64,000 bases of DNA from positions 310,001 through 374,000 of the forward strand of contig JAVLUZ010000548.1 in assembly GCA_036768485.1 (NCBI GenBank). Reading direction: 5' to 3'. Origin of the DNA: Mermis nigrescens (lineage: Eukaryota; Nematoda; Enoplea; Mermithida; Mermithidae). This document shows, one piece after another, positions 28,510-64,000 of this stretch; within the stretch, counting starts at the first letter, position 1; each line of letters begins with the position of its first letter. The notes under the pieces are model-generated. The model was given only the letters and a program-made list of their open reading frames with translations, searched no databases and was not told the DNA's origin. The position numbers and the translations under genes were made by a program.

Positions 28510-29105
28510 ATGGAAAAAGTGTTAGAGCGAATATATTATGACCTCGAAACGGGCTATAGTAGCGTGGTACAGCAATATGAGAGGGCTAAAACAGTAAAGC
28601 CAAAAATAGACCGGTCCTACGTGAAAGAATGGTTGGAAACGCAGCCCACCTACACATAACACAAACCCGCCCTCAAGCGATATTATCGAAATAAAGTGTT
28701 AGTAAGGAGCATTGATGAGCAATGGCAAGCTGATATTGTAGATTTGCAGTCTTTAAGCAAGTTTAACGATGATTTCAAGTATCTCTTGAATTGCATAAAC
28801 ATTTTTCAAAGTATGCATGGTCTGTTCCTCTAAAATCCAAAAGTTCAAAAGATGTTCTGACCGCTTTTCAAAGCATTTTTCATTCATCAAATCGAAAACC
28901 GTACAAGCTTCAAACAGATGCAGGGACCAAATCTACAAACAAGGAGTTCCAGAAATTTCTAAAATCTGAATCTATCAATTTTTTCACAACCAGAAGCGAA
29001 ACAAAAGCTAGCAAAGTTGAATGTTTTAATTGCACGCTTAAAGAACGTATGTGGCGGTACTTCACCAGAAGCAATTCGTATAAATATATAAATATATTGA
29101 CGTAA
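28510..29105 (+). pseudogene. Truncated Polinton integrase relic (third copy)
   Basis: Very similar to the integrase at 56818-57878. It starts with MEKVLERIYYD, has a stop at about 28657 (TYT then TAA), a frame break near 28800 and then continues (YAWSVPLKSKSSKD, YKLQTDAG, FFTTRSETKAS, LKERMWRYFTRSN). The Glu of the catalytic ERFN is still readable but degraded to ECFN. Coding similarity ends abruptly at 29105 in repeat sequence, before the SH3-like region and chromodomain. Confidence 0.85.
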
Positions 29106-29750
29106 GTAGTAAGGCCGGACCCTTCATCACCCCTGTACTTAGGCATAGCACGTGCTTAAGCATAGAGACTCCAATTTGGACCACGCACGCTCTTAGTACA
29201 CTTGCACTCAGATGCTTAAATTGCCGTATTTTTGACCATACTACTACACAAAGGCGCTAAGCTTCGAACTCGAGCATTCTATTGTTGCACTGGTCGGTGA
29301 CCCTGGACGAATTCATAACTTTCTTGCTTTGGTGCGAAGCGCCAAACTTTTAATGCACAGTCGGTTATCCTGGACAGGCGGAACCAATTATTTTAATTTG
29401 CATAAGTAAGCATCCCCTTTCACGGCCCATTATAATTTTAGTTCAGATCATCAGCTCAATACACGTTGAAACATTGGCCCGAATTGCCGAACTCGAGCAT
29501 GCTATTTTAAGCTTGACAAAAATCGCCAAATTTTTTACCATACACAAAAGTACAGGCGCGAATTGCTGAACTCGAGCATTCTATTTTAAGCATGGCATGA
29601 AGCGCCGAATTATGGACCATACTACTACACTTTAAAGCACAAAAGTATTGGCAAAAACAGCCGAACTCGAGCGTTCTATTTTAAGCAAGGCATGAATCGC
29701 CGAATTTTGGGCCATACTACTACACAATAAAGTATAGGCGCAAAGCACTG
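29106..29750. repeat. Tandemly iterated GCGCCGAA/ATACTACTACAC repeats
   Basis: No gene. Several diverged units share ACTCGAGCATTCTATTTTAAGC, GCGCCAAATTTTGGACCATACTACTACAC and GGCGCGAATTGC. Parts recur inverted at 34500-34800. It starts with CACGTGCTTAAGCATAGAGACTCC at 29144. Confidence 0.5.
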
Positions 29751-48960: not shown

Positions 48961-49493
48961 AGTCTGTTTCCTTTATTCGAGAGCTGTTTCACTAAATTTT
49001 TTGAAGACTACAGTAAGTACGTCTAACTAGGTGATTTACTGTAACTAGACAGAAACGTTGAGTGGGAGCGAGCGGCCGCCATTCTTTCATTTTTAATGCA
49101 CTAAATCGTCCATATAGACATAATTCAAACATCTAAACAGTGCTGTGACATACATACTACAGTAAGTGCGCTAAATAAAAATCTTGCAGGAGGGATCGAA
49201 CCCGTTTCGCTTCGACGACAATCAAACGTTCTATCACTACGCTAAGCGGAAGTTTTTGGTGATCTTTAAAATGCTAGTCCATTGTGTTCAACGGTCGATT
49301 TATAACAAGCTGAATGCGCGAATTCCATCCGCATGTTGCATGATCTGCTGGAAGACGAGACTGAATTATGCCGTAAAAACTTTTATTCTACATTAATCTC
49401 CAAATGACCTACAGTAAGTAGGGAAGATAGAGTTACTGTAGCCTCGGAAAAGACTTGCTCAAAAAGCTCTCGGATAAATGAAACAGACTATAA
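48961..49493 (-). mobile_element. Foldback-pair MITE, copy 1
   Basis: Tips CAGTCTGTTTCCTTTATTCGAGAGCT and its inverse ending GAAACAGACTATA. The interior has GCTACAGTAAGT-type motifs and, on the minus strand at about 49250-49190, a tRNA-like sequence with a B box (GGTTCGATCCC). It is the inverted twin of 49582-50124. Confidence 0.8.
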
Positions 49494-49581
49494 ATGGTCC
49501 AAGTTTGATGAAAATTTGGCCAAAAATGAATAGATTACCATTGTAGCAAAATGAGTTCCAAACATTATTCGTTAGAAATCT

Positions 49582-50124
49582 ATAGTCTGTTTCATTTATC
49601 CGAGAGCTTTTTCAGCAAATCTTTTCCGAGGCTACAGTAACTCTATCTTCCATACTTACTGTAGGTCATTTAGAGATCACTGTAGCTACATAGGAAGGAA
49701 GGGTTTTTCAATAAAATTTCTTACGGCATAATTTGTTCTCGTCTTCCAGCAAATCATGCAACATGCGGATGGAATTCGCGCATTCAGCTTGTCATAAATC
49801 GACCGTTAAACACAATAGACTAGCATTTTAAACATCGCCGAAAACTTCCGCTTAGCGTAGTGGTAGAACGTCTGATTGTCGTCGAAGCAACACGGGTTCG
49901 ATTCCTGCTGCAAGATTTTTATTTAGCGCACTTACTTTAGTATGTCACAGCACTGTTTAGATGCTTGAATTAAGTCTATATGGACGGTTTAGTGCATTAA
50001 TGGACGGTCACTTGCCCCCATTCAATTTTTCTGTCGAGTTACAGTAAATCACCTAGTTAGGCATACTGTAGCCTTCGAAAAATTTACTGAAAAAAGCTCT
50101 CTCGAATAAATGAAACAGACTATA
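49582..50124 (+). mobile_element. Foldback-pair MITE, copy 2
   Basis: Bounded by CTATAGTCTGTTTC and GAAACAGACTATAG, 14-bp perfect inverted tips. Together with copy 1 and the 88-bp spacer it makes a ~1.16-kb palindrome that could form a long hairpin in transcripts or DNA. Confidence 0.85.
49846..49917 (+). ncRNA. tRNA-like sequence with Pol III A and B boxes inside the MITE
   Basis: TAGCGTAGTGG (49853-49863) fits the A box and GGTTCGATTCC (49895-49905) is an exact B box at normal tRNA spacing. D and T arms fold reasonably. The acceptor stem pairs poorly, so I do not call a working tRNA. A tRNA-derived promoter within a MITE, SINE-like, is the better description. Confidence 0.5.
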
Positions 50125-51617
50125 GAAAATTGATTCACTAAGCACACTTACTTTACTCATCACGTCACCAACCAATTCGATGAAGTGTAAAGCCATTCCT
50201 TTTATCCGGCATTGTTTTCATTCTCATCCCGTTGGCGACCTGCCAATTCGAATGCCTTTCTGAGAAGTCTTACTACCATATGAGCATGGGAGCAACCTAA
50301 TGATGGGGGTCCGATGGAGCAAAATCACCTAGAATCGCGTTGAAAAGATTTCTGGGGTCCAATAAGCGAAATCGCCAAAAAATCACTAAAAATTCCATTC
50401 CTCGGGTCGATCAATTTTAGGGTTCATTCGCCTGCTTGGGGAAGAGGGATCAAAGCCCCATACACCTATCCGCCATGCTTATGTTTGGTCGCCACTGAAG
50501 TGAGAACGGAAGCAATGCTGGAATATGGTAGGAATAACTTTAGCTTTTGGATTGAATTGGATTCAGGCCTAGATATACATAGTAGGTAGCATTTGATGCA
50601 ATATATTTTTATCAAATTCAAACCAAAAACTAAAGTTAAAAAACCCTTCAGATACATAGCTGGTTCATGCTGACAGGCCTTGAATAGGTATTGGGGTTTG
50701 GGCAGAAGGTTTCGGCTGGGCCGTATATGGGGAGCGCTCGATTTCTGCGAGCTCAACAATAACAAAGGGCAAAAACGTTCCTACCGGACACTAAGTATTG
50801 ACATCAAAAATTACAAAAAACGAAAAACTTCTAAAAAAACCCATAGACGCTCCCATTCTCCACGTGTGCTTGAAGCGCAGAATGCAAAAACGCCTGTCGC
50901 TCAATATTAAATTTTCGCTGTTTCGCAATTTTTTATGCCAATAGATTGATCTAGGCGGTGAAAAGCTAAAAGTCTTGGAAAATACTTTTTTAGCCCTGCC
51001 ATCATGTTTTATTGCACTTTCTGACCTTTGAACCTGTTTGAAGCCCAGACATATAAGCATTGTGTGTGATACTGCTAATTCAAGTTTTTTTCGCATAATA
51101 TATTCGCGAATTCTTCATCATGAAAATCAATTTTCAGCTTTCACTTAAAAGCAATAAGACATGCGGCAATACCTTTCAATGAAACTTTCTGTAGTTGATT
51201 GTAAGCCTTTTAGTTTACGCCACTTTATAATCAGTTAACATCCTCGGGAAACTGTAAGTTATGCTAACGAATTCGTGATAAAACAGATTAGTCTATTTTC
51301 AAACACATTCTTGTTAAATCGATGTAAAGCAACAATAAAAAATGCATTTAAACCTCAAAAACATTTCTTGTTGAATTGGTGTAAAGCGGCAATAAGAAAC
51401 GCATTTAAACAAAGGAACAATTAATATCGATAGCTATACAAAACATAAGTTTTCAATTGCAAAGCTTCTGCAGATTATCATAAAGCCACTCTTGAATCCA
51501 CCCGGTTATTGCATTATGATTCTATGGTTTTTAAAATATAATCATAATTATTTTTTATAAGGTGTATTATAGGTACTGATGTAGTCATGATGAAATTTTT
51601 AAAAATTTTAATGCCAG

Positions 51618-51843
51618 ATTACGAGGTCGACACGCTTGGCCCGGCGCCCGCGATGCATTATTGACTACATGGGATCGCGCCCTAGCTCCATTGCGAGCAG
51701 GCCGACGCGAAAATCAAATTAACTGTAACAGTTCCGGCTCTAAAGATGATTCGAATTTTCATCGATTCTCGCTATGTCACGCAATCTTATTTTTTCTTTT
51801 TGTTACCATTTTCTTTCATTTATGTAGAATTTTGTTCTGTTGA
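51618..51843 (+). CDS. Monooxygenase last exon with membrane anchor
   Basis: Acceptor GCCAG; completes the split Arg codon. Reads LRGRHAWPGARDALLTTWDR, matching the family's G--W-GAR-AI-T-WDR block. It ends in a hydrophobic tail (SLCHAILFFLFVTIFFHLC) typical of the C-terminal ER anchor. Stop TGA at 51841-51843. Confidence 0.9.
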
Positions 51844-51898
51844 GGTATGTAAGATGTTCTAAAATCATACATTTCTTACATTTATTAAAGACATTCCA

Positions 51899-52998
51899 GT
51901 TGTAACTACGACAGTTACACCGCACGAACATTATATCGAACCGCGGAAGCAAATCGATTATGACTTTACATCATTATGGCATCCCATAACTAGTAGAGAA
52001 CTAACCATCTTAGGTGATGTGCTAGCTCGAGGTTATGCCTTCAGTTCCTATTGCAATCCTATCTTTCAATTCAAAATTCCATTAGGTACTTGTCCGGTAA
52101 ATCAGAGTTATGTATGCGTTAAGATCAGTAAATTACTTATTTGAATTACCGCAGTAAATATTTGATCTTATGACTTGGTTAATAGTTAATTCAGTCTGTG
52201 CGTAATTTGTTTTGGATAACGACTAGACATCATGTACTGTAATCAATCATGTGTAGTAGTTAGTTGAAGCCGAGTTGGCAGTCGAGTGCGTTACGCCATT
52301 GGAGCCCTTATTGTTCTATTTCGTTTTAGCTGGCTTGCAGCCGCGCCGTTGTTATTTTAGCGTTATTAAAATTAGAAAAATAACTTCCCAGTGATTACAT
52401 ATATCGAGGGAAGGTCGGGCCGCGACGAAAATAAATATTTTATTTTATTCCGACTGAATTTGGAAGGTAAACGATTTTATGCATTACCTTCAACTTATTT
52501 TTGGAAATTTTCTTATCTATTTCTCAACCCTAAAAATAGCTAACATACTATTTAATCTTTTTATGATGACTGTCCAGATTAGAGCTCGCTGTTGTTTGAT
52601 TCAAGATTTAGAGTGCTACACGAATTAGAAACCACAACGTTTTCGGAATCACTCAGTGGTTAGAAAACAAGTTAATTTATCAATTTGAGATATGGGTTGA
52701 GATAGGTCAAATGACCTTGCAAGCATTCCGGGGTTAGGTAGGTACTCAGAGCTAGGACATAGGGCGTAGCTGCTGAGACTCCAGACGGAAAGCGGTCAGC
52801 AACATTAGGACTGAGGGAGTCGAAGCCGTAGGTCATTGAGGGCCGTTGGGTTTAGAGCCGCCCTGCGAGCTTGTAGAACCTGGCCAGCGCTAAGAGCGGC
52901 GTAGGTACCTAAGTAATTCCCGAAGGCAAATACAAGTCCGTGTCTGTGTTGCTTTAGCAATAGTCAAGTACCACAGAGGCGACCGCTGTATTTACACA
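51899..52998 (+). repeat. Solo LTR-like block, plus orientation
   Basis: Homologue of 14054-15080 in opposite orientation. Starts TGTAACTACGACAGTTACACCGC and ends near GCTGTATTTACACA. No gag or pol beside it. Lies 56 bases after the monooxygenase stop, so it may supply or disrupt the 3' end signals of that gene. Confidence 0.65.
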
Positions 52999-54224
52999 AT
53001 CAAAATATTTTAAAATTCGATTCTTCTTAGATTGTTTTTCATGAGTCGTAACCATACGTGGTCAACAACCAAGTTATAGGAGGGGTCCGATAGTGCAAAA
53101 TCATCGAAAATAGCACCAAAAATTCAACCCGGGGTGTCAATCAATTTCAGGGGTTTTCAGATTCTCGAGGGAGAAAGTCTAGAACCGCACGAACATAATA
53201 TGCAGTCCTAATGGGGATCTTGGTGCTATGATTGGCCACACGAATCCGCTTTACACCGTGCTCAGCCAAAAAAGAAATGCGGCTTCGTCTAGAGTCGAAG
53301 CATTACTCTTCGAGTTTAAGCGAAAACGTGTAGATTGAATTGAGATTATGCTACTTTATTTATACCTAAAAAGTTAGGTTCAAAAGGACGAAATTAATTT
53401 TCAGATTAAAAAAACTCTGAATTTCTACATATGCGTGAGCTTTGATGTTATCGATTTATGCTTGCAAAAATAGGCTTTGCTTTGTTCCATTTCTTACAAT
53501 TCTTGCTGGATCTCCAAACGTCAATCCGATACAATGTCGTAGACCTTTTTCTTGCAAGAACGTTTTGAAGGTGCATGTAGAAAAAACGCTTTGAGCCGCT
53601 CCATTGTTTCATTATGTGATAGAAAGAGATAAATGCTAGGTCATGCTATCGCCAATTAAGATGAGAATAAATTAGGCGCATGCATATATTAGGTATTACA
53701 AAAGGATGGTGTATCGGCCATACATAGACCTTGATTTGTTGATGTGCTCACATTTTTTGTTTAATAATATTTTATTTGCTTGTTCTCGATTTTTGTCCAA
53801 GTCCGACTAAAGATCCATTGAACTTCACTTTGCATCCACTGGAAGTTTGAATTAAGAACCTGTCGAAGTTCGAATAGCGTTTCAGCAAAGTTCGACAAAT
53901 TTTGACGTCGAAGTTCCCTTTACGTCAACTATAAAAAACTAGAACTTTGTCGAAGTTCTATAGAGAACTATGAATTAACACGTTTTTTCAATGATATCAT
54001 AAGAAATTATATAGCAGTATGGTGTGAGCATTCTTGCATATCCAGAGAAAATTTCAAGATAAGAAAATAGGGTTCTTATAAACAAACTTAGCGATCTATT
54101 CTTTTAAAATGTTTATTAGCATCCCCCGGTTGTTTCACACAAATAAAATCAATGCAAATTTTTTCTGCTTTTCGCACGGAAGTAGTTAAGCGTGCGTCTC
54201 TGGGACAGTGTGTTATAACATACC
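52999..54224. other. Non-coding with one G-rich MITE relative
   Basis: A relative of the M1-type repeats lies at about 53050-53200 (CATACGTGGTCAACAACC, CCGGGGTGTCAATC). Around 53840-53970 there are several TTCGACAAA/GTCGAAGTTC repeats. No gene recognised. Confidence 0.4.
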
Positions 54225-54788
54225 CTATGCTTAAGCATAGGCGGGCGGGCCCAAACTTGCACCCTGGGGTGGGGCCAGGGTGCAATGGTTAAGGATAGGC
54301 AGTGATGAAGGATATAGGGCGTGCCTGGACCGGTCTTTTAGCCCGAGGAGTCCCTGGGGGAGGAAAAGGGAGTTTCCCGGGAAACTATGATTATTGATTT
54401 TTTGCCATGAATAAGACTAAGGGTCCCTGGGGGATGGTGCCCCCAAGCCTAGGGATGGTAGCCTAAGCGATTCTGTGGAGGTGGTCTAAAGTGCGCCTAG
54501 GCCTACTAGTAGGAGGGGAGGTGACACAAGAAGAGCAGTCCTACAGGGGGTTTCCCGGAAACTCAAAAATTATCGATTTTTTAGCTCAGAAGCCTAAGAG
54601 ATGGTGCACGCCTTGGGGATGGTGCCCTGTAAGCCTAAGCAGTCCGCAGTGTAAAGTGCATTTTGTTTTTTCAGGCGTGCCCGGTGTAAAGAAGAAGATA
54701 AGGTAAGACCTGTTGCATGGTCGGGCGCCGTGTAGGGGCGCAACGGGCTTAAGCCACTCGGTAGCGAACTAAGACCCGACCTTTTTAT
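54225..54788. repeat. Left end region of element B with two direct repeat units
   Basis: Starts with the 16-bp perfect palindrome CTATGCTTAAGCATAG (54225-54240). Two imperfect ~170-base units follow, each with TTTCCCGG(G)AAACT, an ATTGATTTTTT/ATCGATTTTTT phrase, GGGGATGGTGCCC and AAGCCTA. Similar sequence at 27470-27740 precedes the third Polinton relic, supporting a terminal location. The matching right repeat is beyond the window. Confidence 0.5.
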
Positions 54789-55106
54789 TTACAAGTTTTT
54801 CAGCATTACATCAAGAACGACGTGATTGTCGATAAATTTTTCGTATAAATTAGCGTAGTATTCTTTTGCCTCAATGCTAAAATTGTCCCATAAATTCATT
54901 AGAGCATTGACGTTATTTAAAGCAATGCATTCGCTTATATGCTGCGAAAAATGCTGAATAGCTTTAGAGTCATTTTCGACTAGTTTCATCCTATACTCTA
55001 CGTCTAGTTTAGGCCAAAAATATTTAGCTATAACGCTTTTGGAAACTTTAGAAAAATGCATTAAGTGTATGACGATATGATTGTAAACTTCTCGATTGTG
55101 CTCCAT
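54789..55106 (-). CDS. ~105-aa family protein, element B member 1
   Basis: Intact 105-aa protein of the repeated family. It shows the pattern clearly: VYNHIVIHLMHF near the start, KYFWPKLDVEYR at about 30-41, KAIQHFSQHIS at about 48-58, LMNLWDNFSIEAKEYYANLY at 68-87 and an IDNH near 93. A minus-strand TATAAATA lies about 30 bases upstream (55139-55146). First gene at the left of element B, transcribed outward. Function unknown. Confidence 0.7.
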   Translation of the reverse strand: MEHNREVYNHIVIHLMHFSKVSKSVIAKYFWPKLDVEYRMKLVENDSKAIQHFSQHISECIALNNVNALMNLWDNFSIEAKEYYANLYEKFIDNHVVLDVMLKNL

Positions 55107-55141
55107 TTTTCTTTTCGTTATTTACTCACGATTATCATTAT

Positions 55142-55513
55142 TTATAACATTATGTTCAGAAACGACAAATTTTCGTAAAAATAGTTTTCGAATGCGGCGT
55201 ACAAAATATTTAAATTTCGGCCCTTTTTTATCATTTCTTTCGCCACGAGTCCCCAAAACGCATAAAAGGCGTAGATTCGCAATTTCGGATAAAGTCCTAA
55301 AATTTCTCTCGATAAATTTTCAAAATGCGGCGAATAAACAGAATCGGCGTCGATGTCTAGCGGCTGGCTCGTAAATTCGAATTCGGCTTCGACGATTCGG
55401 CTTTTAAAATCATTATTAATGCCGCCGTCGAAATTCAAATGCAATTTATCGCTAATATAATTTTTAAATAAAGATAAGGCGTGATTCGTCGCTTCGAGTC
55501 GTCGTGAATCCAT
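55142..55513 (-). CDS. Unassigned 123-aa protein, possible distant ~105-aa relative
   Basis: No family recognised. The C-terminal half (YAFYAFWGLVAKEMIKKG, YAAFENYFYENL) has the aromatic FW plus basic helix plus YENL pattern of the ~105-aa family, but the N-terminal half (VEAEFEFTSQPLDIDADSVY) is different. Same orientation as its neighbours at 54789 and 55602, with 35-90-base gaps. Confidence 0.5.
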   Translation of the reverse strand: MDSRRLEATNHALSLFKNYISDKLHLNFDGGINNDFKSRIVEAEFEFTSQPLDIDADSVYSPHFENLSREILGLYPKLRIYAFYAFWGLVAKEMIKKGRNLNILYAAFENYFYENLSFLNIML

Positions 55514-55601
55514 CTAAAAATTTAATTCAAAAAGTTAACAACAACAGCAATAACAAAAAAGCCGTATGCACATACATAAAAACAATAACAACGGTAGGTA
55601 C

Positions 55602-55940
55602 TTAAAAAGGATAAAACGTCAGTATTTTGTTATAATCACTGTACATTCTCGTAACAACGCGAACTCCGCGGCAATATCTATGGCTGTATGGATTATAGCC
55701 CAAATCAGATGAATGAAAGTATACAAAAATTTCAAAAATTTCGCCATTTTTCTGCGGTTCAGTCCAATATTGCCCATAATTGAAGGCTTTTAAAATAACT
55801 TTTTCAAGTTTTTTAGCGCTTAAAATAAAGTAGCTGCTATCAGTCGCATTAGGATACAAATGTTTTCCGATATGGTTTTCGAACTGGCGTCGTGAAAGGA
55901 AAAATTCATGGTCTCTATAATCAAAATATGGGCCCCACAT
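55602..55940 (-). CDS. Unassigned 112-aa protein of element B
   Basis: No confident family. Aromatic-rich. The C-terminus (RYCRGVRVVTRMYSDYNKIL then TFYPF) has the VRVVT-x-IxTFYP strand pattern that also occurs at the end of some small RNase-fold domains, and FENHIGKHLYP supplies possible catalytic His residues. This is a weak resemblance only. It starts 131 bases from the divergent zinc-ribbon-like gene. Confidence 0.5.
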   Translation of the reverse strand: MWGPYFDYRDHEFFLSRRQFENHIGKHLYPNATDSSYFILSAKKLEKVILKAFNYGQYWTEPQKNGEIFEIFVYFHSSDLGYNPYSHRYCRGVRVVTRMYSDYNKILTFYPF

Positions 55941-56006
55941 ACTGCGAATGAGAACAGACTACGCAATGAGAGCGGACTGAATGTTTCCTGGAAAAAGTTT
56001 CCCGGG

Positions 56007-56020
56007 AAAGTCTATAAATA
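56007..56020 (+). promoter_or_regulatory. TATA motif AAAGTCTATAAATA
   Basis: Located 51 bases before the ATG at 56072, just after TTTCCCGGGAAA. Same core as the sites at 56401, 59661, 60612, 61022 and 62763. Confidence 0.7.
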
Positions 56021-56071
56021 AGAACATTGTAAAAAGGTTTTAAACTACTAAGAACGAATTTCTAACCAAAA

Positions 56072-56401
56072 ATGGAAGAATTGAGAGAAATCAAAAAATT
56101 GCCGTTCACCGAAGGCGAAAATAAGCCCTATGGGAGGTCGATTAGACCGCCTATAGAGCTATGTGGTAGAAATCTGGAGCGCCCCATGTTCCCCCTGATG
56201 ATTCACCTCTGCTACTTTTGTCAGAAAAATAGTTCTGAAAGGGATTTTTTCGAAACAAATGCAGGCAGGTGGTACTTCAATATACAAATGTGCCCCAGGT
56301 GCAGCGAATTCAATAGGGCCATGCAAGAAGCAGGGCAGCGAGTGCTGAAGCGCTACACTGAGCAGCAGGCCGAGGCGGAAAAGGCCAAGGCTGCTTACTA
56401 A
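56072..56401 (+). CDS. Zinc-ribbon-like 109-aa protein
   Basis: Two CxxC pairs (CYFCQ at about 47-51 and CPRC at about 74-77, 23 residues apart) suggest a zinc-binding ribbon or treble clef. The C-terminus is a charged helix (RYTEQQAEAEKAKAAY). The first 35 residues are basic/proline-containing with no motif. Function unknown. A transcription-factor-like ribbon is possible given the TBP in the same element, but nothing specific supports it. Its stop directly abuts the next TATA motif. Confidence 0.6.
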   Translation: MEELREIKKLPFTEGENKPYGRSIRPPIELCGRNLERPMFPLMIHLCYFCQKNSSERDFFETNAGRWYFNIQMCPRCSEFNRAMQEAGQRVLKRYTEQQAEAEKAKAAY

Positions 56402-56414
56402 AAGTCTATAAATA
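56401..56414 (+). promoter_or_regulatory. TATA motif AAAGTCTATAAATA
   Basis: Begins at the last base of the preceding stop codon, 42 bases before the ATG at 56457. Confidence 0.7.
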
Positions 56415-56456
56415 AGGGCGCGCGCCAGGTATATTTTATATGTTAAAGCAACTACC

Positions 56457-56783
56457 ATGTCTTCTCCTGGCGAACTAGCGTATCATCATTTTGTTCAAAG
56501 GCTCGTTGAAAAAGCAAACAACCGCTACTTGAGCGTCAAAAATGTTCAAAATATAGGCTCGTGTTTCTGGGGATTCATGAGCGAAGAGTTTAAACGAGAG
56601 CAACGCGAAAGTGATAAACGCAACGCGTTCTGGGTCTTTGCTCAAAGTATAAAGCAAACGATTCTGAATAAAGATATTGATGCTATATGTAGTCTATGGT
56701 CGTCGTTCGACATAAATGGAAAAAACATGTGGGAGAATCTGTACGAAAACTGTATCGCTTATCATGTAAATCGTGTGTTGTAA
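56457..56783 (+). CDS. ~105-aa family protein, element B member 2
   Basis: Intact, 108 aa. YHHFVQRL near the start, CFWGFMSEEFKREQRESDK, AFWVFAQSIK, ICSLWSSFDINGKNMWENLYE. It is the copy that links the diverged element A protein (1193-1504, FW/KES/FWYFA) to the other members (YFWPK, LW, ANLYEK). Own TATA motif 42 bases upstream. Ends 34 bases before the integrase ATG. Confidence 0.7.
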   Translation: MSSPGELAYHHFVQRLVEKANNRYLSVKNVQNIGSCFWGFMSEEFKREQRESDKRNAFWVFAQSIKQTILNKDIDAICSLWSSFDINGKNMWENLYENCIAYHVNRVL

Positions 56784-56817
56784 TGTTAATAAATAAATAA
56801 AAAAGAAAAAAACGGAA

Positions 56818-57878
56818 ATGGATAGAATACTGAAAAAATTGTACTACGACCCGCAAAGCGGGTTCACAGGCGTCAACCAACTTTACACTCGAGTGAAAAA
56901 ATTCGCCCGACCGCCAAATTGGAACAGGTAAAAGCATGGCTGGAAAAACAACCTACCTACACTTTACACAAACCCGCATTCAAGCGTTATTCTCGAAACA
57001 AAGTCCTAGTGAGCAGCATAGACGAGCAGTGGCAGGCTGATTTGGTCGATTTGCAATCCCTAGCCGACCACAACGATAATTTTAAGTACCTACTCAACTG
57101 TATAGACATTTTCTCAAAGTACGCATGGTCCGTTCCACTAAAAAGCAAAAATTCAAAAGACATTGTTGAGGCTTTTAAACACATTTTTGCATCGTTTGGC
57201 CGCAAGCCCTACAAGCTACAAACGGATGCGGGCAAAGAATTTGTAAACAACGAGTTTCAGAAATTTTTGAAATCAGAATCTGTAGATTTTTTCACCACTA
57301 AAAGCGAAATGAAAGCATCTGTAGTAGAGCGTTTCAATAGAACACTCAAAGAACGCATGTGGAGGTACTTTACTAAAAACAACACGCACAAGTATATTGA
57401 CATTTTGCCAAAAATTATGAAAAATTACAACAATTCGTTTCATAGAACAATAGGTACGTGTCCGGCAAATGTGACGGCTAAGAACGAGCGTGAAATATTA
57501 AACAGAGCATTCCGCCTTACGGGCGATAATCAAACTGAATTCAAATTCGAAATTGGCGATAACGTCAGAATAAGTAAAGTGAAGCGTACGTTCGAAAAAG
57601 GGTTCTGGCCCAATTGGACCGAGGAGTATTTTTTAATTAAGGAAAGATATGCTAGAACCCCGCCTGTCTATGTTTTAGAAGATCAAATGGGCGAAAAACT
57701 AGATGGTATTTTTTACGAGCCCGAACTGCAAAAGATTAACGTTTCCACTGACGATTTGTTCATTATTGATAAAATTATAAAAACGCGAAAAAGAGGCGCA
57801 AAAACTGATTATTTGGTACACTGGAGGGGCTATCCGCCAAAATTTGATTCATGGGTCTCTAATGTGCTAAAAGTATAA
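56818..57878 (+). pseudogene. Polinton integrase with chromodomain, one A-run frameshift
   Basis: Starts at 56818 (MDRILKKLYYDPQSGF, matching the third copy's MEKVLERIYYD). The frame is lost at the A run 56895-56900, where one more A would keep it open. It then runs intact from 56919 to 57878. The core has QADLVDLQSL and CIDIFSKYAWSVP (first Asp), LQTDAGKEFVN (second Asp) and VVERFNRTLKERM (Glu), followed by IGDNVRISK and a chromodomain (TDYLVHWRGYPPKFDSWV). Apart from the A run it appears fully conserved, so a sequencing error is a real possibility. Confidence 0.92.
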
Positions 57879-57881
57879 ATA
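57869..57881 (+). promoter_or_regulatory. TATA motif AAAAGTATAAATA
   Basis: Overlaps the integrase stop codon and lies 32 bases before the ATG at 57914. One or two changes from the consensus. Confidence 0.6.
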
Positions 57882-57913
57882 ACGATTTCGTCTATTGTAA
57901 ATCTTTTAAAAAA

Positions 57914-58231
57914 ATGGAGGTTGGACAGTGTTTTTTCAATCATGCGTTGCACCGTTTGTCTCAATACACGTACTTTTCTGACGCCGCACTTGGCGCGTAT
58001 TTTTGGCCAAAAATGAGCAAACAATATAGGCGAACATTACTAGAAATTGATGAACACGCCATTTGGCGCTTTTCAAAGTATATAAGAAAATATTTACAAA
58101 GAGGCGAACTGAGCACGCTTTTCAAGTTATGGGAATTTTTAAGCCCAGAGGCCAAATTTTATTATGCAAATCTATACATAAAAATTATTGATGAGCATTT
58201 CACCCCATCCATGACAAACGTTCTAATCTAA
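57914..58231 (+). CDS. ~105-aa family protein, element B member 3
   Basis: Intact, 105 aa. CFFNHALHRLS, AYFWPKMSKQYRRTLLEID, AIWRFSKYIRKYL, LFKLWEFLSPEAKFYYANLY, IDEH. Closest to the member at 54789-55106. All of these positions are shared, suggesting a compact alpha-helical fold with invariant aromatic residues. Followed by the TTTGTAAAG repeat array. Confidence 0.72.
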   Translation: MEVGQCFFNHALHRLSQYTYFSDAALGAYFWPKMSKQYRRTLLEIDEHAIWRFSKYIRKYLQRGELSTLFKLWEFLSPEAKFYYANLYIKIIDEHFTPSMTNVLI

Positions 58232-58239
58232 AAAACGCA

Positions 58240-58490
58240 AATTTTTTGTAAAGTTTGGAATAAATTTTACATGCTTAAGCATAGTACTTTTGTAAAGTTT
58301 GGAATATTTTTTGTAAAGTTTGGAATATTTTTTGTAAAGTTTGGAATATTTTTGTAAAGTTTGGAATATTTTTTGTAAAGTTTGGAATATTTTTTGTAAA
58401 GTTTGGAATATTTTTTGTAAAGTTTGGAAAATTTTTTGTAAAGTTTGGAATATTTTTTGTAAAGTTTGAAAAAGTTCTTGTAAACTTTAG
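58240..58490. repeat. Array of ~10 TTTTTTGTAAAGTTTGGAATA units
   Basis: Near-perfect tandem units of 20-21 bases, more regular than the related arrays at 22190-22570 and 23420-23970. The second unit is interrupted by ACATGCTTAAGCATAGTAC (58269-58287), as the array in element 2 is at 23837. Lies between convergently placed genes (57914 plus, TBP minus), so a terminator, replication or spacer role is possible. Confidence 0.85.
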
Positions 58491-58494
58491 AATA

Positions 58495-59013
58495 TTATGT
58501 ATCTAATCTGCATTTCTCAAGCATTGTTGAAACTATTTTATACGCTATATGCAACTCGTGCTTGTGTTTTGCACCTGTGAGAATCATTTTTCCGCTTGTA
58601 AAGAGTAAAAAAGTCACATTTCTATATTTGTATACTAGGCCGGGAAATAATTCTACTTCGTACATGCATTTTCTTTTCACCAGCTCATAAAACTTGCAAA
58701 GATCAATGCGAAATCCCAAGTTAGCCGAGCCAACAAACAGCACAGGCTTTATTTTCAACATTAAATTCTCCATTTTTAGTATATGGATGAATGCCTTTAT
58801 CGTATTTTCTCCTTCTTGAACAGTTTTAGCTCCAACACATACAATTTTGCCCGACTTGAAAATCAGCAACGTAGCTGGGAGTAATCGAAATATGATGCCT
58901 GGAAATTTTAGGCGATTGTATTGCGTAGTATTTGGCAATTTAAGGTAGATATCATCTAGATTTAGCGTGTTTGGTAGTGCTGTAGTTAGCACAATGTTCT
59001 GTATTGTAACCAT
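58495..59013 (-). CDS. TATA-binding protein (TBP) homologue encoded by the Polinton
   Basis: Complete 172-aa TBP core of two ~85-residue direct repeats forming the DNA-binding saddle. Repeat 1 (residues about 2-82): TIQNIVLTTALPNTLNLDDI, LKFPGIIFR, LLIFKSGKIVCVGAK. Repeat 2 (about 85-170): VGSANLGFRIDL, YEVELFPGLVY, FLLFTSGKMILTGAK. The DNA-kinking phenylalanines are present in both repeats (FPG, IF-SGK / FPG, LF-SGK). It has no N-terminal extension, unlike host TBP. The sequence is strongly diverged from metazoan TBP yet keeps every structural block. It is divergently paired with the packaging ATPase, with 43 bases between the start codons and TATA motifs facing both ways. Intact frame with no introns. 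It probably directs RNA polymerase to the element's own promoters. Confidence 0.94.
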   Translation of the reverse strand: MVTIQNIVLTTALPNTLNLDDIYLKLPNTTQYNRLKFPGIIFRLLPATLLIFKSGKIVCVGAKTVQEGENTIKAFIHILKMENLMLKIKPVLFVGSANLGFRIDLCKFYELVKRKCMYEVELFPGLVYKYRNVTFLLFTSGKMILTGAKHKHELHIAYKIVSTMLEKCRLDT

Positions 59014-59014
59014 T

Positions 59015-59050
59015 TTCTATAAATACCTATATATAAATTGTTATTTATAA
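59015..59050. promoter_or_regulatory. Bidirectional TATA promoter between TBP and ATPase genes
   Basis: Plus strand TTCTATAAATAC at 59015, 31 bases before the ATPase ATG. On the minus strand GTTTATAAATAAC (59038-59050) faces the TBP gene, and a central TATATATA is shared. The whole intergenic gap is only 43 bases. Confidence 0.7.
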
Positions 59051-59056
59051 ACAAAA

Positions 59057-59703
59057 ATGATTTTCAAACACCCTTTCACCTGTCTTGTCTCTGGACCAAC
59101 AAAGTCCGGTAAAACTACATTTGTTGGGCAATTAATCGAAAATAGAGCACACTTGATTGATACCAAAATTAAAAGATTTGGTGGTGCTTTGCAGAAAATC
59201 AACCACTTTACAGGAAAATTGAAAATGTTTCGTTTATAGAGGGGCTTCCTGATTTCTCATACTTGAAACAGTTTAGTCCTGTGCCGCAACTTTTGATTCT
59301 CGACGATCTGATGCAAGAGAGCAAAGGTAATACTCAGATTGTACAGCTGTTTACTCGTAGTTGTCATCATTGGAACATTAGCATTATTCACATTGTTCAA
59401 AACGTGTTCTTTGAGGGACTCAGAACTTCACGTATAAACTCTGACTATATAGTTTTATTTAAAAATCCTGCCGATCAATTACAGGCGCAAGTTTTATCTC
59501 GTCAGCTTTATCCTGCCAATCCGAAATATTTCATAGAAGCCTACTCTGATGCTACTGCTCAGCCGCATGGCTATCTGTTGATTGATCTTACTCAGAACGC
59601 TAGAGATGAACTTAGGCTAAAAACGAATATCTTCAGCAGTCATCCAGCTGTTTATATGCAAAAATCTATAAATACTACAAAAAAAGGTGATGAAATCAAA
59701 TAA
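59057..59703 (+). pseudogene. Packaging ATPase, full length with one A-run frameshift
   Basis: Walker A GPTKSGKTT at residues about 14-22. The frame breaks at the AAAA run 59171-59174, then continues through a WWCFAENQ-type segment and LLILDDLM (Walker B), TRSCHHWNISIIHIVQN (sensor-like), VLFKNPADQLQ and GYLLIDLTQN to the stop at 59703. Same family as the C-terminal fragment at 3-455. The single missing base is the only defect, so the gene may be intact in reality. Confidence 0.9.
59661..59675 (+). promoter_or_regulatory. TATA motif AAAATCTATAAATAC inside the ATPase 3' end
   Basis: Coding for the ATPase C-terminus (KSINT) and 34 bases before the GGFLP ATG at 59710. Confidence 0.7.
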
Positions 59704-59709
59704 AACAAA

Positions 59710-60060
59710 ATGGGTAAAGAACGATTAAGACGCAATATTATTTGTTTACACCTTCTAAGTCAAGCAAGGAAACCTCAAAGAGACGCTATTATAAATACTG
59801 CCAGTAAAGATCAGATTCTTTGTCTCTGTGACTGTGCAAACAACTTTCTTAACGGTAATATTCCCTTTTCTGAAAAGGATATCAACAAACTTCGAAGATA
59901 CCAGCATCAAATAAGGTACTTGGCAAAAAATAAACAGGCAAACACAAAACAAAAAAGAGGTATTTTAATACAAGACGGTGGTTTTCTTCCACTTTTACTC
60001 ACTCCTATTCTTACAATTGCAGGTACTTTACTAGCTGATGCAATAACACGCAGGCAATGA
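59710..60060 (+). CDS. GGFLP protein, element B copy
   Basis: Intact, 116 aa. RLRRNIICLHLLSQARKPQR, CDCANNFLNGNIPFS, KLRRYQHQIRYLAKNK, then QDGGFLPLLLTPILTIAGTL. About two thirds identical by eye to the copy at 25075. Stop overlaps the next ATG (ATGA at 60057-60060), as in element A, so the two proteins are translated from one mRNA and probably act together. Confidence 0.78.
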   Translation: MGKERLRRNIICLHLLSQARKPQRDAIINTASKDQILCLCDCANNFLNGNIPFSEKDINKLRRYQHQIRYLAKNKQANTKQKRGILIQDGGFLPLLLTPILTIAGTLLADAITRRQ

Positions 60061-60623
60061 AGCACACTGAAAAAATGATTTTAATACCCGCTGAAATCAG
60101 TGAACGTTCTAAACCAGTCGACGTTTTGCTTGATAACTTAAATAATGAGATGCAACAAATTTTAAGCAGCAAAAATGTACCATCTGATGTAAAACTTGTA
60201 AAATATAATCAAATACTAGGCAAATTTAAGCGATTGCTCGAACAGAAGCAGCAACCATATAAAGCTACTATTGTAGGACATGCAAGTGACACAATTAATG
60301 ACGAAGAAATACTCGCTGGTATACCGAAAAATCAGATTCCAAAGGCAAAACTCCTTCTACACTACATTCGCACAAACCCATTTGTGGAAATCGAGCCTAA
60401 TGGCGAGCTTGTAATAGATGGTCGAAAAATCAATGGTTCAAACATCACAGATTTAGTTAATGATCTGGCACGTGAGCGCAAAAAAATAAGCAGGCATCCA
60501 GGCACAAAAGAATTGCTGAAAGTGTTTAATCGCACAAATGTACCCCTAGAAAGTATTGCTAATAGACAAGGTAAGGAGATCTTTGCTGCAGGCGACGAAT
60601 TTGACTGGGATGAAAGTCTATAA
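60057..60623 (+). CDS. Partner protein of GGFLP, intact copy
   Basis: 188 aa. N-terminal MILIPAEISE, a helical middle (LLDNLNNEMQQILSS, YNQILGKFKRLLEQK), then VEIEPNGELVIDGRKINGSN followed by DLVNDLARERKK and a Trp-containing acidic end. The IDG-x2-I-x-GSN-x2-DLVND block is the family core, found in many Polintons beside GGFLP. It lacks the basic repeat tail of the element A version. Its stop codon is part of the next TATA motif. No motif reveals its function. Confidence 0.75.
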   Translation: MKHTEKMILIPAEISERSKPVDVLLDNLNNEMQQILSSKNVPSDVKLVKYNQILGKFKRLLEQKQQPYKATIVGHASDTINDEEILAGIPKNQIPKAKLLLHYIRTNPFVEIEPNGELVIDGRKINGSNITDLVNDLARERKKISRHPGTKELLKVFNRTNVPLESIANRQGKEIFAAGDEFDWDESL

Positions 60624-60627
60624 ATAC
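60612..60627 (+). promoter_or_regulatory. TATA motif GAAAGTCTATAAATAC
   Basis: Encodes the last residues and the TAA stop of the preceding gene (GAA AGT CTA TAA). 37 bases upstream of the ATG at 60665. Confidence 0.72.
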
Positions 60628-60664
60628 TTATTGTTTTATTTTTTATGTGAATAAAATTTTAAAA

Positions 60665-61114
60665 ATGCATGTACAATTCACTCCTGACAATTACACCATT
60701 TGGTTGGAATACTACACTGGGCAGGCTGCCCAAACCGGCTATGGGTTGGATGGGTTTAAAGGCATCCCATACCAGCGGGGTGTTGGCCTTGGCAGTTTTT
60801 TCCGCTCACTTTTTAGAATGGCCGTCCCTGTTTTGCAATCAATAGGTAAGCGTGTTGGAAAGCATGCTTTGGCAGCAGGTGCAAACATAGCGTCCGATTT
60901 GGCTCAAGGAAAACCGCTTTTTGAGTCTACTAAGGAACATTCAAAGCGAGAAGCTGCTCAACTTTTTGATGAAGCCTCTCATGCCCTTCAGCAGCAGCAA
61001 GGAGAGGGTCTTGGTTACCGCTCAAAGTCTATAAATACTAATGCAATTGATGCTTTTTCTAAAAACGACAACAAAAATGGCTCTCATAGACGTAAAATCT
61101 ATCCCAAGTACTAA
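60665..61114 (+). CDS. Minor virion protein, pX/pVI-like, element B copy
   Basis: 149 aa from the ATG at 60665. A longer in-frame reading would need GTG at 60647 and lacks support from the homologue, which begins MHV. GVGLGSFFRSLFRMAVPVLQ, GKHALAAGANIASDLAQGK, then a Gln-rich stretch and a basic end. The basic tail is shorter than in element A. The end overlaps the major capsid start at 61077, and the TATA motif for the capsid gene lies within it. Confidence 0.75.
   Translation: MHVQFTPDNYTIWLEYYTGQAAQTGYGLDGFKGIPYQRGVGLGSFFRSLFRMAVPVLQSIGKRVGKHALAAGANIASDLAQGKPLFESTKEHSKREAAQLFDEASHALQQQQGEGLGYRSKSINTNAIDAFSKNDNKNGSHRRKIYPKY
61022..61038 (+). promoter_or_regulatory. TATA motif TCAAAGTCTATAAATAC
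   Basis: Inside the pX-like gene (codes SKSINT), 38 bases before the capsid ATG at 61077. Confidence 0.72.
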
Positions 61115-62369
61115 AACCGAACTTGACCTTTTTACGGTCCCTCCTACCCAGGTGGTGATAAAGCGAGGCTTCTGGCATGAAATCCAGCCAACGCATCCCA
61201 TTACTAACGAGGGGCCGTATGAGTTCAGAATTCCTCCTGACCCGCATTACCTACAACTGAGTAAAAACCACATTTATATGCTATTAAGAATTAAAAAACC
61301 AACAGTCGCAGCTGGAGCATCAGTACCCGACTATGCGCCTATCAATCTAATTGGTAAGACTTTCTTCAAGCAGGTGAAATGTTTCCTAGGAGGCCGCTTA
61401 ATTTTTGATAGCTCTGATAAGTATGCATACAGATCGTACTTTGAAACTGAATTAAATTATGGTTATGATGCAAAGCATTCTCAACTGCAATCTGCACTTT
61501 ACTTTCACGAAGGAGGAGGCAATGTGGACACAAAAGACAATGAAGCATTTAAAATACGTGCTAGAATGTTTAAAGATGAAAATTTTGTAGAAGTCGCGGC
61601 TCCATTGCACATTGACTTGTTCTTGCAAGACAGATTTCTGATTAATTTCACCGATTTTCGCTTAGAATTACATAGAAATAGCGACGCATTTTTACTGCAG
61701 TGCTTTGAAGACGCTGTTTTAGAATTAAAAGTCTCACAAATGAAATTTTTTATTCGAAAAGTTGAGGTTTTAGACACTCTCAATTTAGCACTCGAACAAA
61801 CAATGCTCTCATATACAGCAAAGTATCCTATTAGGCGCGTGGCTATGACTAACTTACACATTTCAAATCCTGCTAGAGAAACGCCCAATTATACCCTGTT
61901 TAATGGTCAGCTACCTAGGCGTATGGTGTTTGCTTGTGTCGATGGCAATGCATATCGAGGCAATTTGACCAAATCGCCATTTAATTTCAAACCATACAGT
62001 ATATACGATGTAAAAGTAACGTGTGGCGGCACAACCTACCCCGCTTATCCACTCAACATTGCATTCAAACACGATAGGTACTTGCAAGCTTATAATCAGA
62101 TGTATGATGCACTAGATATAGGACGTGAAGGTAATTTCATTAGCAGAGACGAGTTTAAAACAAGCCACTGCTTCTTTGTGTTTGACCTAACGCCTGACGC
62201 AGATGATGGAGGGCATTGGGATCTAGTGCATGAAGGAACAACGAGCATAACTGTAAGGTTTGCTGACAATTTGCCTGATTCTGGCGTGGAAATCATTATA
62301 TACGCCGAATTTGATAACTTAATACTGATTGACAAAAATCGAAACACGTTTCATGACTATAATGCATAG
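61077..62369 (+). CDS. Major capsid protein (double jelly-roll), intact
   Basis: 430 aa from the ATG at 61077 (MALIDVKSIPSTKTELD). An upstream in-frame Met lies inside the pX-like gene. Two jelly-roll halves: the first with GPYEFRIPPDPHYLQLS, NLIGKTFFKQVK, DKYAYRSYFETELN and VAAPLHIDLFLQDR, the second with LPRRMVFACVDG, CGGTTYPAYPL, HWDLVHEGTTSI and IIIYAEFDNLILID. Hexamer or trimer capsomer protein of the icosahedral shell. No internal defects, in contrast with the element A copy. Confidence 0.95.
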   Translation: MALIDVKSIPSTKTELDLFTVPPTQVVIKRGFWHEIQPTHPITNEGPYEFRIPPDPHYLQLSKNHIYMLLRIKKPTVAAGASVPDYAPINLIGKTFFKQVKCFLGGRLIFDSSDKYAYRSYFETELNYGYDAKHSQLQSALYFHEGGGNVDTKDNEAFKIRARMFKDENFVEVAAPLHIDLFLQDRFLINFTDFRLELHRNSDAFLLQCFEDAVLELKVSQMKFFIRKVEVLDTLNLALEQTMLSYTAKYPIRRVAMTNLHISNPARETPNYTLFNGQLPRRMVFACVDGNAYRGNLTKSPFNFKPYSIYDVKVTCGGTTYPAYPLNIAFKHDRYLQAYNQMYDALDIGREGNFISRDEFKTSHCFFVFDLTPDADDGGHWDLVHEGTTSITVRFADNLPDSGVEIIIYAEFDNLILIDKNRNTFHDYNA

Positions 62370-62372
62370 AAA

Positions 62373-62798
62373 ATGAATACCATTGAAATATTCAAAATTC
62401 TTCAGCGTAATATTAAAAAGGATATATTTTTAGGTGTTTTTCCATTAGACCGCCTGCCACCTATTATAACCTACCCTGCGGCTCTAGTGATTAATTTAGA
62501 TACTAGCAATGCGCCTGGCTCGCACTGGGTCGCCATATACTTTCAAAGCAATAAACACTGCGACTATTTTGACAGCTATGGGCGAAAACCATTTAACCAC
62601 TTATTGCATTATATTTCAAATAATGCACTCACATATGCGTACAATAATGCGCAGGTACAGGGGCTCTTTTCAATCAGCTGTGGTCACATGTGTGTATATT
62701 TCCTAGTTTGCCGTGCACAAGGTATTTCGTTTAAGAACATTGTCACATCAATGCAACATGAAAAAATCTATAAATACTTCAATAATTTTAAGTTGTAA
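62373..62798 (+). CDS. Adenain-like cysteine protease, element B copy
   Basis: 141 aa. IFLGVFPLDRLPP, then His in GSHWVAIYF, Asp in YFDSYGRKP, Gln in NNAQVQG and Cys in SISCGHMCVYF. Follows the capsid stop by 3 bases without its own TATA motif, so probably expressed from the capsid mRNA. Shorter than the element A protein at the C-terminus. Confidence 0.93.
   Translation: MNTIEIFKILQRNIKKDIFLGVFPLDRLPPIITYPAALVINLDTSNAPGSHWVAIYFQSNKHCDYFDSYGRKPFNHLLHYISNNALTYAYNNAQVQGLFSISCGHMCVYFLVCRAQGISFKNIVTSMQHEKIYKYFNNFKL
62763..62777 (+). promoter_or_regulatory. TATA motif AAAATCTATAAATAC inside the protease 3' end
   Basis: 23 bases before the penton ATG at 62801. Encodes protease residues KIYKY. Confidence 0.72.
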
Positions 62799-62800
62799 AC

Positions 62801-63580
62801 ATGGATATGAAACAATTTTACCTTACTCTTCCAAGCAATTCACAAGAAACAAATACTGCAGCCACATTTCTTACCAATCTGCCTAGACAAATTGTATTGA
62901 ATGGTGAGTGGGAGGTTGGTTTAGTAGAAATAATTTATGCAAATACATGGCACAATGTTTCCGAGGAGCAGAATATGATACAATTTTATGATATAAAAAA
63001 CAATGTGCGACAAAAATTGCTTATTCCTCGAGCAAGATATTTAAATATACATGACCTCATTCAAGCTATGAGAAATGGAATAAAAACAATTAGCTCAATA
63101 GATAAATTTGATTACATGCAATATTTTGGCATAAAGTATGATGAAAATAGAAAATTTTGTCATATGACAATAAATTCTAAATATATTCAAAGTGTAAAGC
63201 TGACAAAGCATTTAATGTATATGCTGGGATTTCTAGAGAGCCAGCTTAGTAATATAGATTATACTGTGAAAAAAGAATTTAGCATAGTTGCGCACCATTC
63301 GCCTGATATGCTAGGTGGTATGCATAATTTTTACGTGTATTGCGATATAGTTGAACCTCAAATAGTTGGGAATACTTTTGCGCCACTTCTGCAAGTTGTA
63401 AATATTGAAGGAAAATACATGGATATTGTAAATCACTCGTACATTAGCCCCCATTATATACCTGTACTCAAGAAAGCATTCAATACTGTTGAAGTGAACA
63501 TTAAAAGCGACCAAGATAAACCCGTTCCCTTCGAATTTGGCAAAACTATCGTTAAACTGCATTTCAGATATCGCCTATAA
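62801..63580 (+). CDS. Minor capsid protein (penton-like), intact
   Basis: 259 aa, full length. QFYLTLPSN near the start, GEWEVGLVEIIYANTWHNVS, a long beta-rich middle, MLGFLESQL, FYVYCDIVEPQIVGNT, HYIPVLKKAFNTVEVNIK, KTIVKLHFRYRL at the end. It is the vertex protein in Polintons. Serves as the reference for the frameshifted element A copy. Confidence 0.93.
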   Translation: MDMKQFYLTLPSNSQETNTAATFLTNLPRQIVLNGEWEVGLVEIIYANTWHNVSEEQNMIQFYDIKNNVRQKLLIPRARYLNIHDLIQAMRNGIKTISSIDKFDYMQYFGIKYDENRKFCHMTINSKYIQSVKLTKHLMYMLGFLESQLSNIDYTVKKEFSIVAHHSPDMLGGMHNFYVYCDIVEPQIVGNTFAPLLQVVNIEGKYMDIVNHSYISPHYIPVLKKAFNTVEVNIKSDQDKPVPFEFGKTIVKLHFRYRL

Positions 63581-63585
63581 ATATC
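63572..63585 (+). promoter_or_regulatory. TATA motif CGCCTATAAATATC
   Basis: Covers the penton stop codon (CTA TAA), 23 bases before the ATG at 63609. Confidence 0.65.
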
Positions 63586-63608
63586 ACCGTTTATCAAATA
63601 TCGTAAAC

Positions 63609-63927
63609 ATGGATCAAGGACAAAAAATTTACAACCATTTCTTAATGCACCTGCTTCGCCTAGACGATATATCTTCCTCAGCCTTAGGCAGCTACTTTTT
63701 GGCCCCTGCTCAATGCTGAGTACAAAGAAACAATTTATTGCAATATGATGCAGAGGCTTTCAACAACTTTTCTCGCCTCATCAAACAATGTTGCACTCTC
63801 CGAGACATACACACTCTAGCTAATCTGTGGCAAAAATTTCAATGACCGAGCAAAGCAATATTTTGCATACTTTCACGAACGATCAATTGATGAGCACATA
63901 CTCTGCTACATTGTGCTTGAAAACTAA
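63609..63927 (+). pseudogene. ~105-aa family protein, element B member 4, broken
   Basis: Starts YNHFLMHLLRL-type at 63609, reaches SYF, and loses frame at the T run at about 63693-63697, where there is one T more than the family pattern allows. Later pieces in other frames supply NLLQYDAEAFNNFSRLI, LANLWQKF and SIDEH before the stop at 63927. Three shifts in all. The pattern identifies it clearly as a family member. Confidence 0.6.
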
Positions 63928-64000
63928 TATTGCCAAGTGTAAACTGATGCTGGTATACTGCGGGCCGCGCGCTAAAAGTTTGTACATAGGATACCTAACA

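What the first reader, a model, noticed from the sequence alone, without database searches (positions are those of the whole stretch)
58495..59013. TATA-binding protein homologue inside a Polinton-type element
A complete two-repeat TBP lies between a ~105-aa element gene and the packaging ATPase. The sequence shows both FPG/SGK-GAK saddle repeats, an intact frame and no intron. TBP homologues are established in large nucleocytoplasmic DNA viruses. I know of none in the usual Polinton gene set (polymerase, integrase, ATPase, protease, capsids). If real, the element brings its own promoter-recognition factor, and its strong divergence argues against a recent host copy.
Basis: partly seen in the sequence, partly recalled or inferred. 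Interest (0 to 1): 0.96.

Follow-up and report, generated by a model that had tools for sequence, protein, structure and literature searches.

The report
Virus-like transposon with own TATA-binding protein
A virus-like mobile element of the Polinton kind carries an intact gene for its own TATA-binding protein, and 11 of its 16 predicted genes have the identical TATA tag just upstream, so the element likely supplies its own factor for switching on its genes.

The parts
58495..59013 (-). TATA-binding protein gene, 172 aa, intact
59042..59049 (-). TATAAATA box of the TBP gene; first T 36 nt before its ATG
59018..59025 (+). TATAAATA box of the ATPase gene; first T 39 nt before its ATG
59014..59056 (.). 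43-bp divergent TBP/ATPase intergenic stretch holding both boxes
   Evidence: sequence; ATPase ATG 59057
58239..58496 (.). 21-bp minisatellite next to the TBP stop codon
59057..59703 (+). packaging ATPase in two frames (59057-59239 with a P-loop-like GPTKSGKTT, 59173-59703 with the rest); frame broken between 59173 and 59239 in this copy
   Evidence: the second piece is 55-56% identical to the E2 ATPase piece; Pfam matches are all below cut-off
56818..57878 (+). RVE integrase with chromodomain; the likely ATG 56818 is in another frame than the body from 56919
   Evidence: PF00665 52.5 bits (cut-off 32.6), PF00385 32.3 bits (25.1); start codons
61077..62369 (+). major capsid protein, double jelly roll (predicted)
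62373..62798 (+). adenain-like protease
   Evidence: PF00770 E 4.8e-4, 20.3 bits, just under the cut-off of 21.3
59710..60060 (+). 116-aa ORF, element gene; box at 59667-59674
   Evidence: relatives in E2 and E3; box
60057..60623 (+). 188-aa ORF, element gene; overlaps the gene before it, no box of its own
   Evidence: relative in E2
60665..61114 (+). 149-aa ORF (called 155aa in the text after its GTG frame), element gene; box at 60619-60626
   Evidence: relative in E2; box
62801..63580 (+). 259-aa ORF, element gene; box at 62769-62776
   Evidence: relative in E2; box
54789..55106 (-). 105a ORF, member of a small element family; box at 55139-55146 (-)
   Evidence: family members 105a, 105b, 108aa, 105c; box
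56072..56401 (+). 109-aa ORF with two CxxC pairs; box at 56013-56020
   Evidence: no Pfam match; box
56457..56783 (+). 108-aa ORF of the 105 family; box at 56407-56414
57914..58231 (+). 105b ORF; box at 57874-57881
63609..63924 (+). 105c, broken copy of the 105 family; box at 63576-63583
61030..61037 (+). TATAAATA box of the capsid gene, inside the gene before it

Best explanation
This is a Polinton-type element that encodes an intact TATA-binding protein and carries the identical TATAAATA box 32-59 nt upstream of 11 of its 16 predicted genes, and the protein likely binds those boxes to start transcription of the element's own genes. Shown: protein identity, element context, the motif and its strand bias (the saddle is a confident structure prediction). 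Inferred: the element TBP bends these boxes, recruits host TFIIB (both glutamates that contact TFIIB are kept) and host RNA polymerase II, and is likely less open to host regulators such as Mot1/BTAF1, TFIIA and TAF1, because most of the basic helix patch they share is gone. The TBP gene has its own TATA box, so it would regulate itself. With the usual spacing of about 30 nt from TATA box to start site (recalled), the start site of TBP and that of the ATPase would each fall inside the other's box, so the two would tend to be expressed in alternation.
For: TBP identity. Element context. TATAAATA upstream of 11 of 16 predicted starts, wrong strand 0 of 16, 100 nt downstream 1 of 16; random starts inside the element at most 7 of 16 in 20,000 sets; 1000 dinucleotide shuffles at most 2 for this word and 6 for any 8-mer; 2000 sets of random stretches from 8200-54500 at most 5 for any 8-mer. 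E2, a related Polinton, 0 of 11. Boxes fall in all three codon phases of the gene before and in three cases form its stop codon, so selection is on DNA. Four Phe and Glu119/Glu121 kept, K/R lost at positions 69, 74, 77, 81; roles of such residues in PMC7221094 (passages, section 12). TBP and ATPase boxes face each other in 43 bp.
Against: E3 (17350-29200) has 9 boxes but no TBP trace, so host TBP may suffice. TATAAATA is also a good site for ordinary TBPs (recalled). Two polar groove residues are replaced (V60, L92) and both stirrup loops are two residues shorter. Integrase, ATPase and 105c frames are broken here, so this copy may be dead. The two glutamates are also kept in 9 of 9 viral-contig TBPs, which were found with a pattern that includes one of them. 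Pfam scans of the visible ORFs show no TFIIB-like partner. No expression or binding data.
Confidence: 0.6

Rival explanations
1. The TATA boxes are real element promoters but are read by host TBP; the element TBP is a captured passenger or has another use.
For: E3 has 9 boxes and no TBP trace. The word fits ordinary TBPs (recalled). The TBP has lost two groove residues kept in nearly all other rows.
Against: A passenger would not be expected to keep an intact 172-codon frame, four Phe and both TFIIB glutamates while integrase and ATPase frames are broken, nor to sit under the same box as the other genes. E2, in the same host, lacks the boxes (0 of 11).
Confidence: 0.22
2. The element TBP works against the host: it competes with host TBP or ties up TFIIB, lowering host transcription or diverting it to the element.
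For: TFIIB contacts kept while most of the basic patch shared by TFIIA, TAF1 and Mot1 is lost (PMC7221094).
Against: Does not explain the uniform boxes on the element's own genes.
Confidence: 0.09
3. The TBP is, or is becoming, a host gene (a TBP paralogue kept after the element decayed).
For: TBP is intact in a copy whose integrase and ATPase frames are broken; the tree puts it on the eukaryotic side (88/80).
Against: The capsid, protease and most small ORFs are also intact, so the breaks may be recent or assembly errors; promoter layout is that of the element.
Confidence: 0.06
4. Assembly error placed a TBP gene from elsewhere beside the ATPase.
For: A minisatellite flanks the TBP on one side; long-read contiguity was not testable.
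Against: On the other side only 43 bp separate TBP from the ATPase start, and both promoters there carry the element-wide box.
Confidence: 0.03

Closest known systems
Polintons/Mavericks and adintoviruses
   Same: Integrase with chromodomain, double-jelly-roll capsid model, adenain-like protease, ATPase pieces
   Different: Carries a TBP and a uniform TATAAATA promoter. The usual gene set has no TBP (recalled); E2 in the same window shows neither in its visible part
TBPs of giant viruses (NCLDV) and mirusviruses
   Same: A DNA virus with its own TBP. Mirusviruses: TBP in 59% of genomes against 0% of Nucleocytoviricota in that study (PMC10132985, passages); megavirus TBP beside TFIIB and RNA polymerase genes (PMC11464507, passages)
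   Different: Those genomes are far larger, and megavirus has its own polymerase. In the 50 BFVD rows listed, identity is at most 22%, lower than to cellular TBPs (33-43%)
Herpesvirus late-gene TBP mimic (KSHV ORF24)
   Same: Replaces TBP at viral late promoters and uses host Pol II (PMC7498053, passages)
   Different: A TBP-like domain within a larger protein, reading a TATT motif and binding the Pol II tail; here a stand-alone TBP with clear sequence homology and a canonical TATA word
Virophage and endogenous mavirus-like promoter motifs
   Same: One shared motif upstream of many genes of a small integrated virus (PMC8547959, passages); the box here often reads TCTATAAATA, and mavirus uses TCTA
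   Different: Virophage motifs are thought to match a helper giant virus's factors; here the candidate factor is encoded by the element itself

Membership tests
TATA-binding protein (PF00352) | Two TBP repeats above the curated cut-off | tested here: met
   136.9 bits against 22.9, two stretches
TATA-binding protein (PF00352) | Saddle fold | tested here: met
TATA-binding protein (PF00352) | Four intercalating Phe (role recalled) | tested here: met
   F37, F52, F123, F138; Phe in 113 of 113 eukaryotic and 14 of 14 archaeal rows at each
TATA-binding protein (PF00352) | Binds TATA DNA | not testable with these tools
   No binding assay
Canonical cellular TBP with the full contact set | All four polar groove residues (role recalled) and the N-lobe basic patch | tested here: not met
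   V60 and L92 in place of Thr and Asn (T112 of 113, N113 of 113 in eukaryotes); E69, A74, H77, M81 where at least 112 of 113 have K/R
Polinton/Maverick | RVE integrase | tested here: met
   PF00665 52.5 bits, cut-off 32.6; chromodomain 32.3 bits, cut-off 25.1; N-terminal frame broken
Polinton/Maverick | Double-jelly-roll capsid protein | tested here: met
Polinton/Maverick | Adenain-like protease | tested here: inconclusive
   PF00770 20.3 bits against 21.3
Polinton/Maverick | FtsK/HerA-type packaging ATPase | tested here: inconclusive
   P-loop-like motif by eye; Pfam matches all under cut-off; PDB profile nothing significant; 55% identical to the E2 piece
Polinton/Maverick | Protein-primed DNA polymerase B | tested here: inconclusive
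   Not in the visible part of the element, which runs off the window; weak PF03175 (E 0.008) in one E3 piece
Polinton/Maverick | Terminal inverted repeats and 6-bp target duplication | tested here: inconclusive
   No inverted pair of 25 nt or more within 50000-64000; the right end lies outside the window
Giant-virus or mirusvirus TBPs | Groups with those TBPs in a tree | tested here: inconclusive
   The tree puts it next to eukaryotic TBPs (88/80), away from 10 viral-contig TBPs of unexamined identity; joining it to the main viral clade is not rejected (p-AU 0.218); named NCLDV sequences were not in the tree

The most novel reading that the evidence does not exclude
A Polinton that runs a self-contained, TFIID-independent promoter system: its own TBP, stripped of the host-regulator patch but still able to dock host TFIIB, reads one TATA box on most element genes. 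Box classes TATAAATAA (TBP and small accessory genes) and TATAAATAC (ATPase, capsid and morphogenesis genes) set early and late phases, and TBP and ATPase form a mutually exclusive divergent switch. The TBP comes from a lineage that branched off before all sampled eukaryotic TBPs.
Probability: 0.22. Interest if true: 0.94.

Novelty: new variant of a known kind. Interest (0 to 1): 0.83.

Why it matters
Polintons are thought to sit near the root of many eukaryotic DNA viruses (recalled), yet how they drive their own genes is little known. A small capsid-bearing transposon with its own TBP and matching promoter boxes would be a minimal, testable case of the step from host-dependent to self-directed transcription, otherwise known from giant viruses, mirusviruses and herpesviruses. 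It also gives a concrete signature, a TBP gene plus TATAAATA boxes, to look for in other Polintons.

Tried and rejected
Searches that gave nothing: viral-contig scans with the TBP alone, the capsid protein alone, capsid alignments A3 and A4 and ATPase alignment A7 found no relative. Integrase alignment A6 gave one distant locus, L093 (27%), with no TATAAATA on either strand. So promoters of related Polintons outside the window could not be compared. Rfam: no match in the window at gathering scores. PDB profile of the ATPase pieces: only one chance-level row, E 0.28. Phage, plasmid and E. coli record searches were not run.

Rejected: chance ORF (E 2.1e-40); processed host pseudogene (no frame break, 43-bp pairing with the ATPase, element-type TATA box); codon constraint as the cause of the motif (three codon phases).

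Not settled: TBP origin. AU tests do not reject a metazoan clade (dlnL 15.45, p 0.094), a viral clade (p 0.218), pairing with P0003 (p 0.073) or a place inside the eukaryotic crown (p 0.252). The tree had 59 rows: the query, 26 of 120 listed proteins, 22 of 80 archaeal loci and 10 of 12 viral loci. In one search, 4 of 117 eukaryotic rows were dropped as longer than 345 aa, and 14 of 80 archaeal and 9 of 12 viral loci were used. The two promoter classes were noticed after the fact (5 of 5 against 0 of 6, p 0.002). Gene starts of both elements were chosen by me from ORFs and similarity (ATPase 59057, integrase 56818, 155aa 60665, capsid 61077, 105c 63609; E2 capsid 5890 and 5887).

Full report

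PROMOTERS. TATAAATA occurs 23 times in the window against 6.8 expected, 12 of them in the last 9.3 kb. Eleven of those 12 stand 32-59 nt upstream of a predicted start on the gene's own strand; the twelfth (59790) lies inside the 116aa gene. Controls: wrong strand 0 of 16; 100 nt downstream 1 of 16; 20,000 sets of random starts in the element at most 7; 1000 dinucleotide shuffles at most 2 for this word and 6 for any 8-mer; 2000 sets of random stretches from 8200-54500 at most 5 for any 8-mer. The five starts without a box are 188aa (overlapping the gene before it), the protease (4 nt after the capsid stop), the integrase, and the 123- and 112-aa ORFs. Of seven boxes checked against the gene before, six lie inside that gene and one just after it; they use all three codon phases, and three supply its stop codon. 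So the conservation is at DNA level. The ATPase, 116aa, 155aa, capsid and 259aa genes have TATAAATAC, the other six do not (p 0.002, noticed after the fact).

NATURAL CONTROLS IN THE WINDOW. A second Polinton (E2, 1 to about 8000; matching pieces mostly 25-56% identical) has the box at 0 of 11 starts and no 8-mer shared by more than 2 of 11. The region before its ATPase lies outside the window, so whether E2 has a TBP there is unknown. A third, decayed region (E3, 17350-29200) has 9 boxes, among them one exact and two near copies of GTCTATAAATA upstream of a polymerase-like gene (weak PF03175, E 0.008 in one piece), a minisatellite related to the one beside the TBP, and no TBP trace (next best profile hit in the window E 0.66). 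This is the main evidence that the boxes may also work without an element TBP.

RESIDUES. Against 113 eukaryotic, 14 archaeal and 9 viral-contig TBPs the protein keeps the four intercalating Phe, one Asn and one Thr of the groove, and Glu119 and Glu121. In PMC7221094 (passages, section 12) two C-lobe glutamates contact TFIIB, with about 40% conservation at one of them in viral TBPs, and an N-lobe basic cluster contacts TFIIA, TAF1, Mot1, Brf1 and Brf2 and is not conserved in viral TBPs. Matching my positions to that paper's labels is my inference. Here K/R is lost at 69, 74, 77 and 81 and kept at 63 and 73. The nine viral-contig TBPs also keep both glutamates, but were found with a pattern containing one of them. 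V60 and L92 replace groove Thr and Asn, which may alter specificity. Both stirrup loops are two residues shorter (A2).

ORIGIN. The tree places it as a long branch (1.74) beside all eukaryotic TBPs in the set (88/80), outside a well-supported crown (98/95), but AU tests reject none of four other placements. Single-sequence search of the protein set found 3 relatives among 27 candidates, at 32-35% identity; the profile search returned 2690, 120 listed. The 50 listed viral models match at 22% identity or less.

MECHANISM. With a TATA-to-start spacing of about 30 nt (recalled), predicted leaders are 2-29 nt long. Counting 30 nt from the TBP box (first T at 59049) gives 59019, inside the ATPase box; counting 30 nt from the ATPase box (59018) gives 59048, inside the TBP box. 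This reciprocal overlap is why I predict alternation and self-regulation. Pfam scans of the visible ORFs show no TFIIB-like gene, so host TFIIB is the likely partner.

LITERATURE. Held library only. 'polinton' with 'TATA-binding protein' 3 papers, with 'TATA' 25, 20 listed; 'adintovirus' 29, 20 listed; 'virophage' with 'TATA-binding protein' 5; two of 'Maverick', 'TATA', 'virus-like transposon' 67, 15 listed; 'polinton' with 'promoter motif' 11; viral TBP phrases 22, 15 listed; five Maverick cargo terms 2; 'TATA-box binding protein' with 'polinton-like virus' 2. In the passages I opened, TBP appears in giant viruses (PMC11464507, PMC12085832), mirusviruses (PMC10132985) and mirusvirus-like elements (PMC10675990), not in a Polinton; in PMC12220804 and PMC13037468 the only 'TATA' matches are an author name. 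The main texts held of PMC11071296, PMC11071308 and PMC10120064 contain no word beginning with TATA or TBP. Most of the listed papers were not opened, and subscription papers are not in the library.

VERDICT. A real TBP gene, built into the promoter layout of a Polinton. Its action on the element's uniform TATA boxes is the most likely mechanism (0.6) and is untested. New variant of a known kind.

Noticed in passing
1-8200: A second Polinton (E2) with ATPase, 116-, 188-, 155- and 259-like ORFs, an unbroken 357-aa integrase frame, protease and a capsid gene in pieces; no TATAAATA at 11 starts.
   Followed up: partly
17350-29200: A third, decayed Polinton-like region (E3): polymerase-like pieces, two integrase pieces (one 70-81% identical to the E1 integrase), a 116-like ORF (68%), nine TATAAATA boxes, no TBP trace.
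   Followed up: partly
58239-58496 and 23472-23960: Related 21-bp minisatellites (69-80% identical) in the TBP element and in E3.
   Followed up: no
54789-55106, 56457-56783, 57914-58231, 63609-63924: A family of about 105-aa proteins in four copies (one broken) within the element; no Pfam match above cut-off.
   Followed up: partly
56072-56401: 109-aa ORF with two CxxC pairs, zinc-ribbon-like by eye, under a TATAAATA box; no Pfam match at E up to 1.
   Followed up: no
48961-50121: A stretch that matches its own reverse complement at 81% over 1.2 kb, a long palindrome-like repeat.
   Followed up: no
L001-L012 (viral contigs): Twelve IMG/VR contigs encode TBPs; seven of the ten placed in the tree form one supported clade near Thermoplasmata TBPs. 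Which viruses they are was not examined.
   Followed up: no
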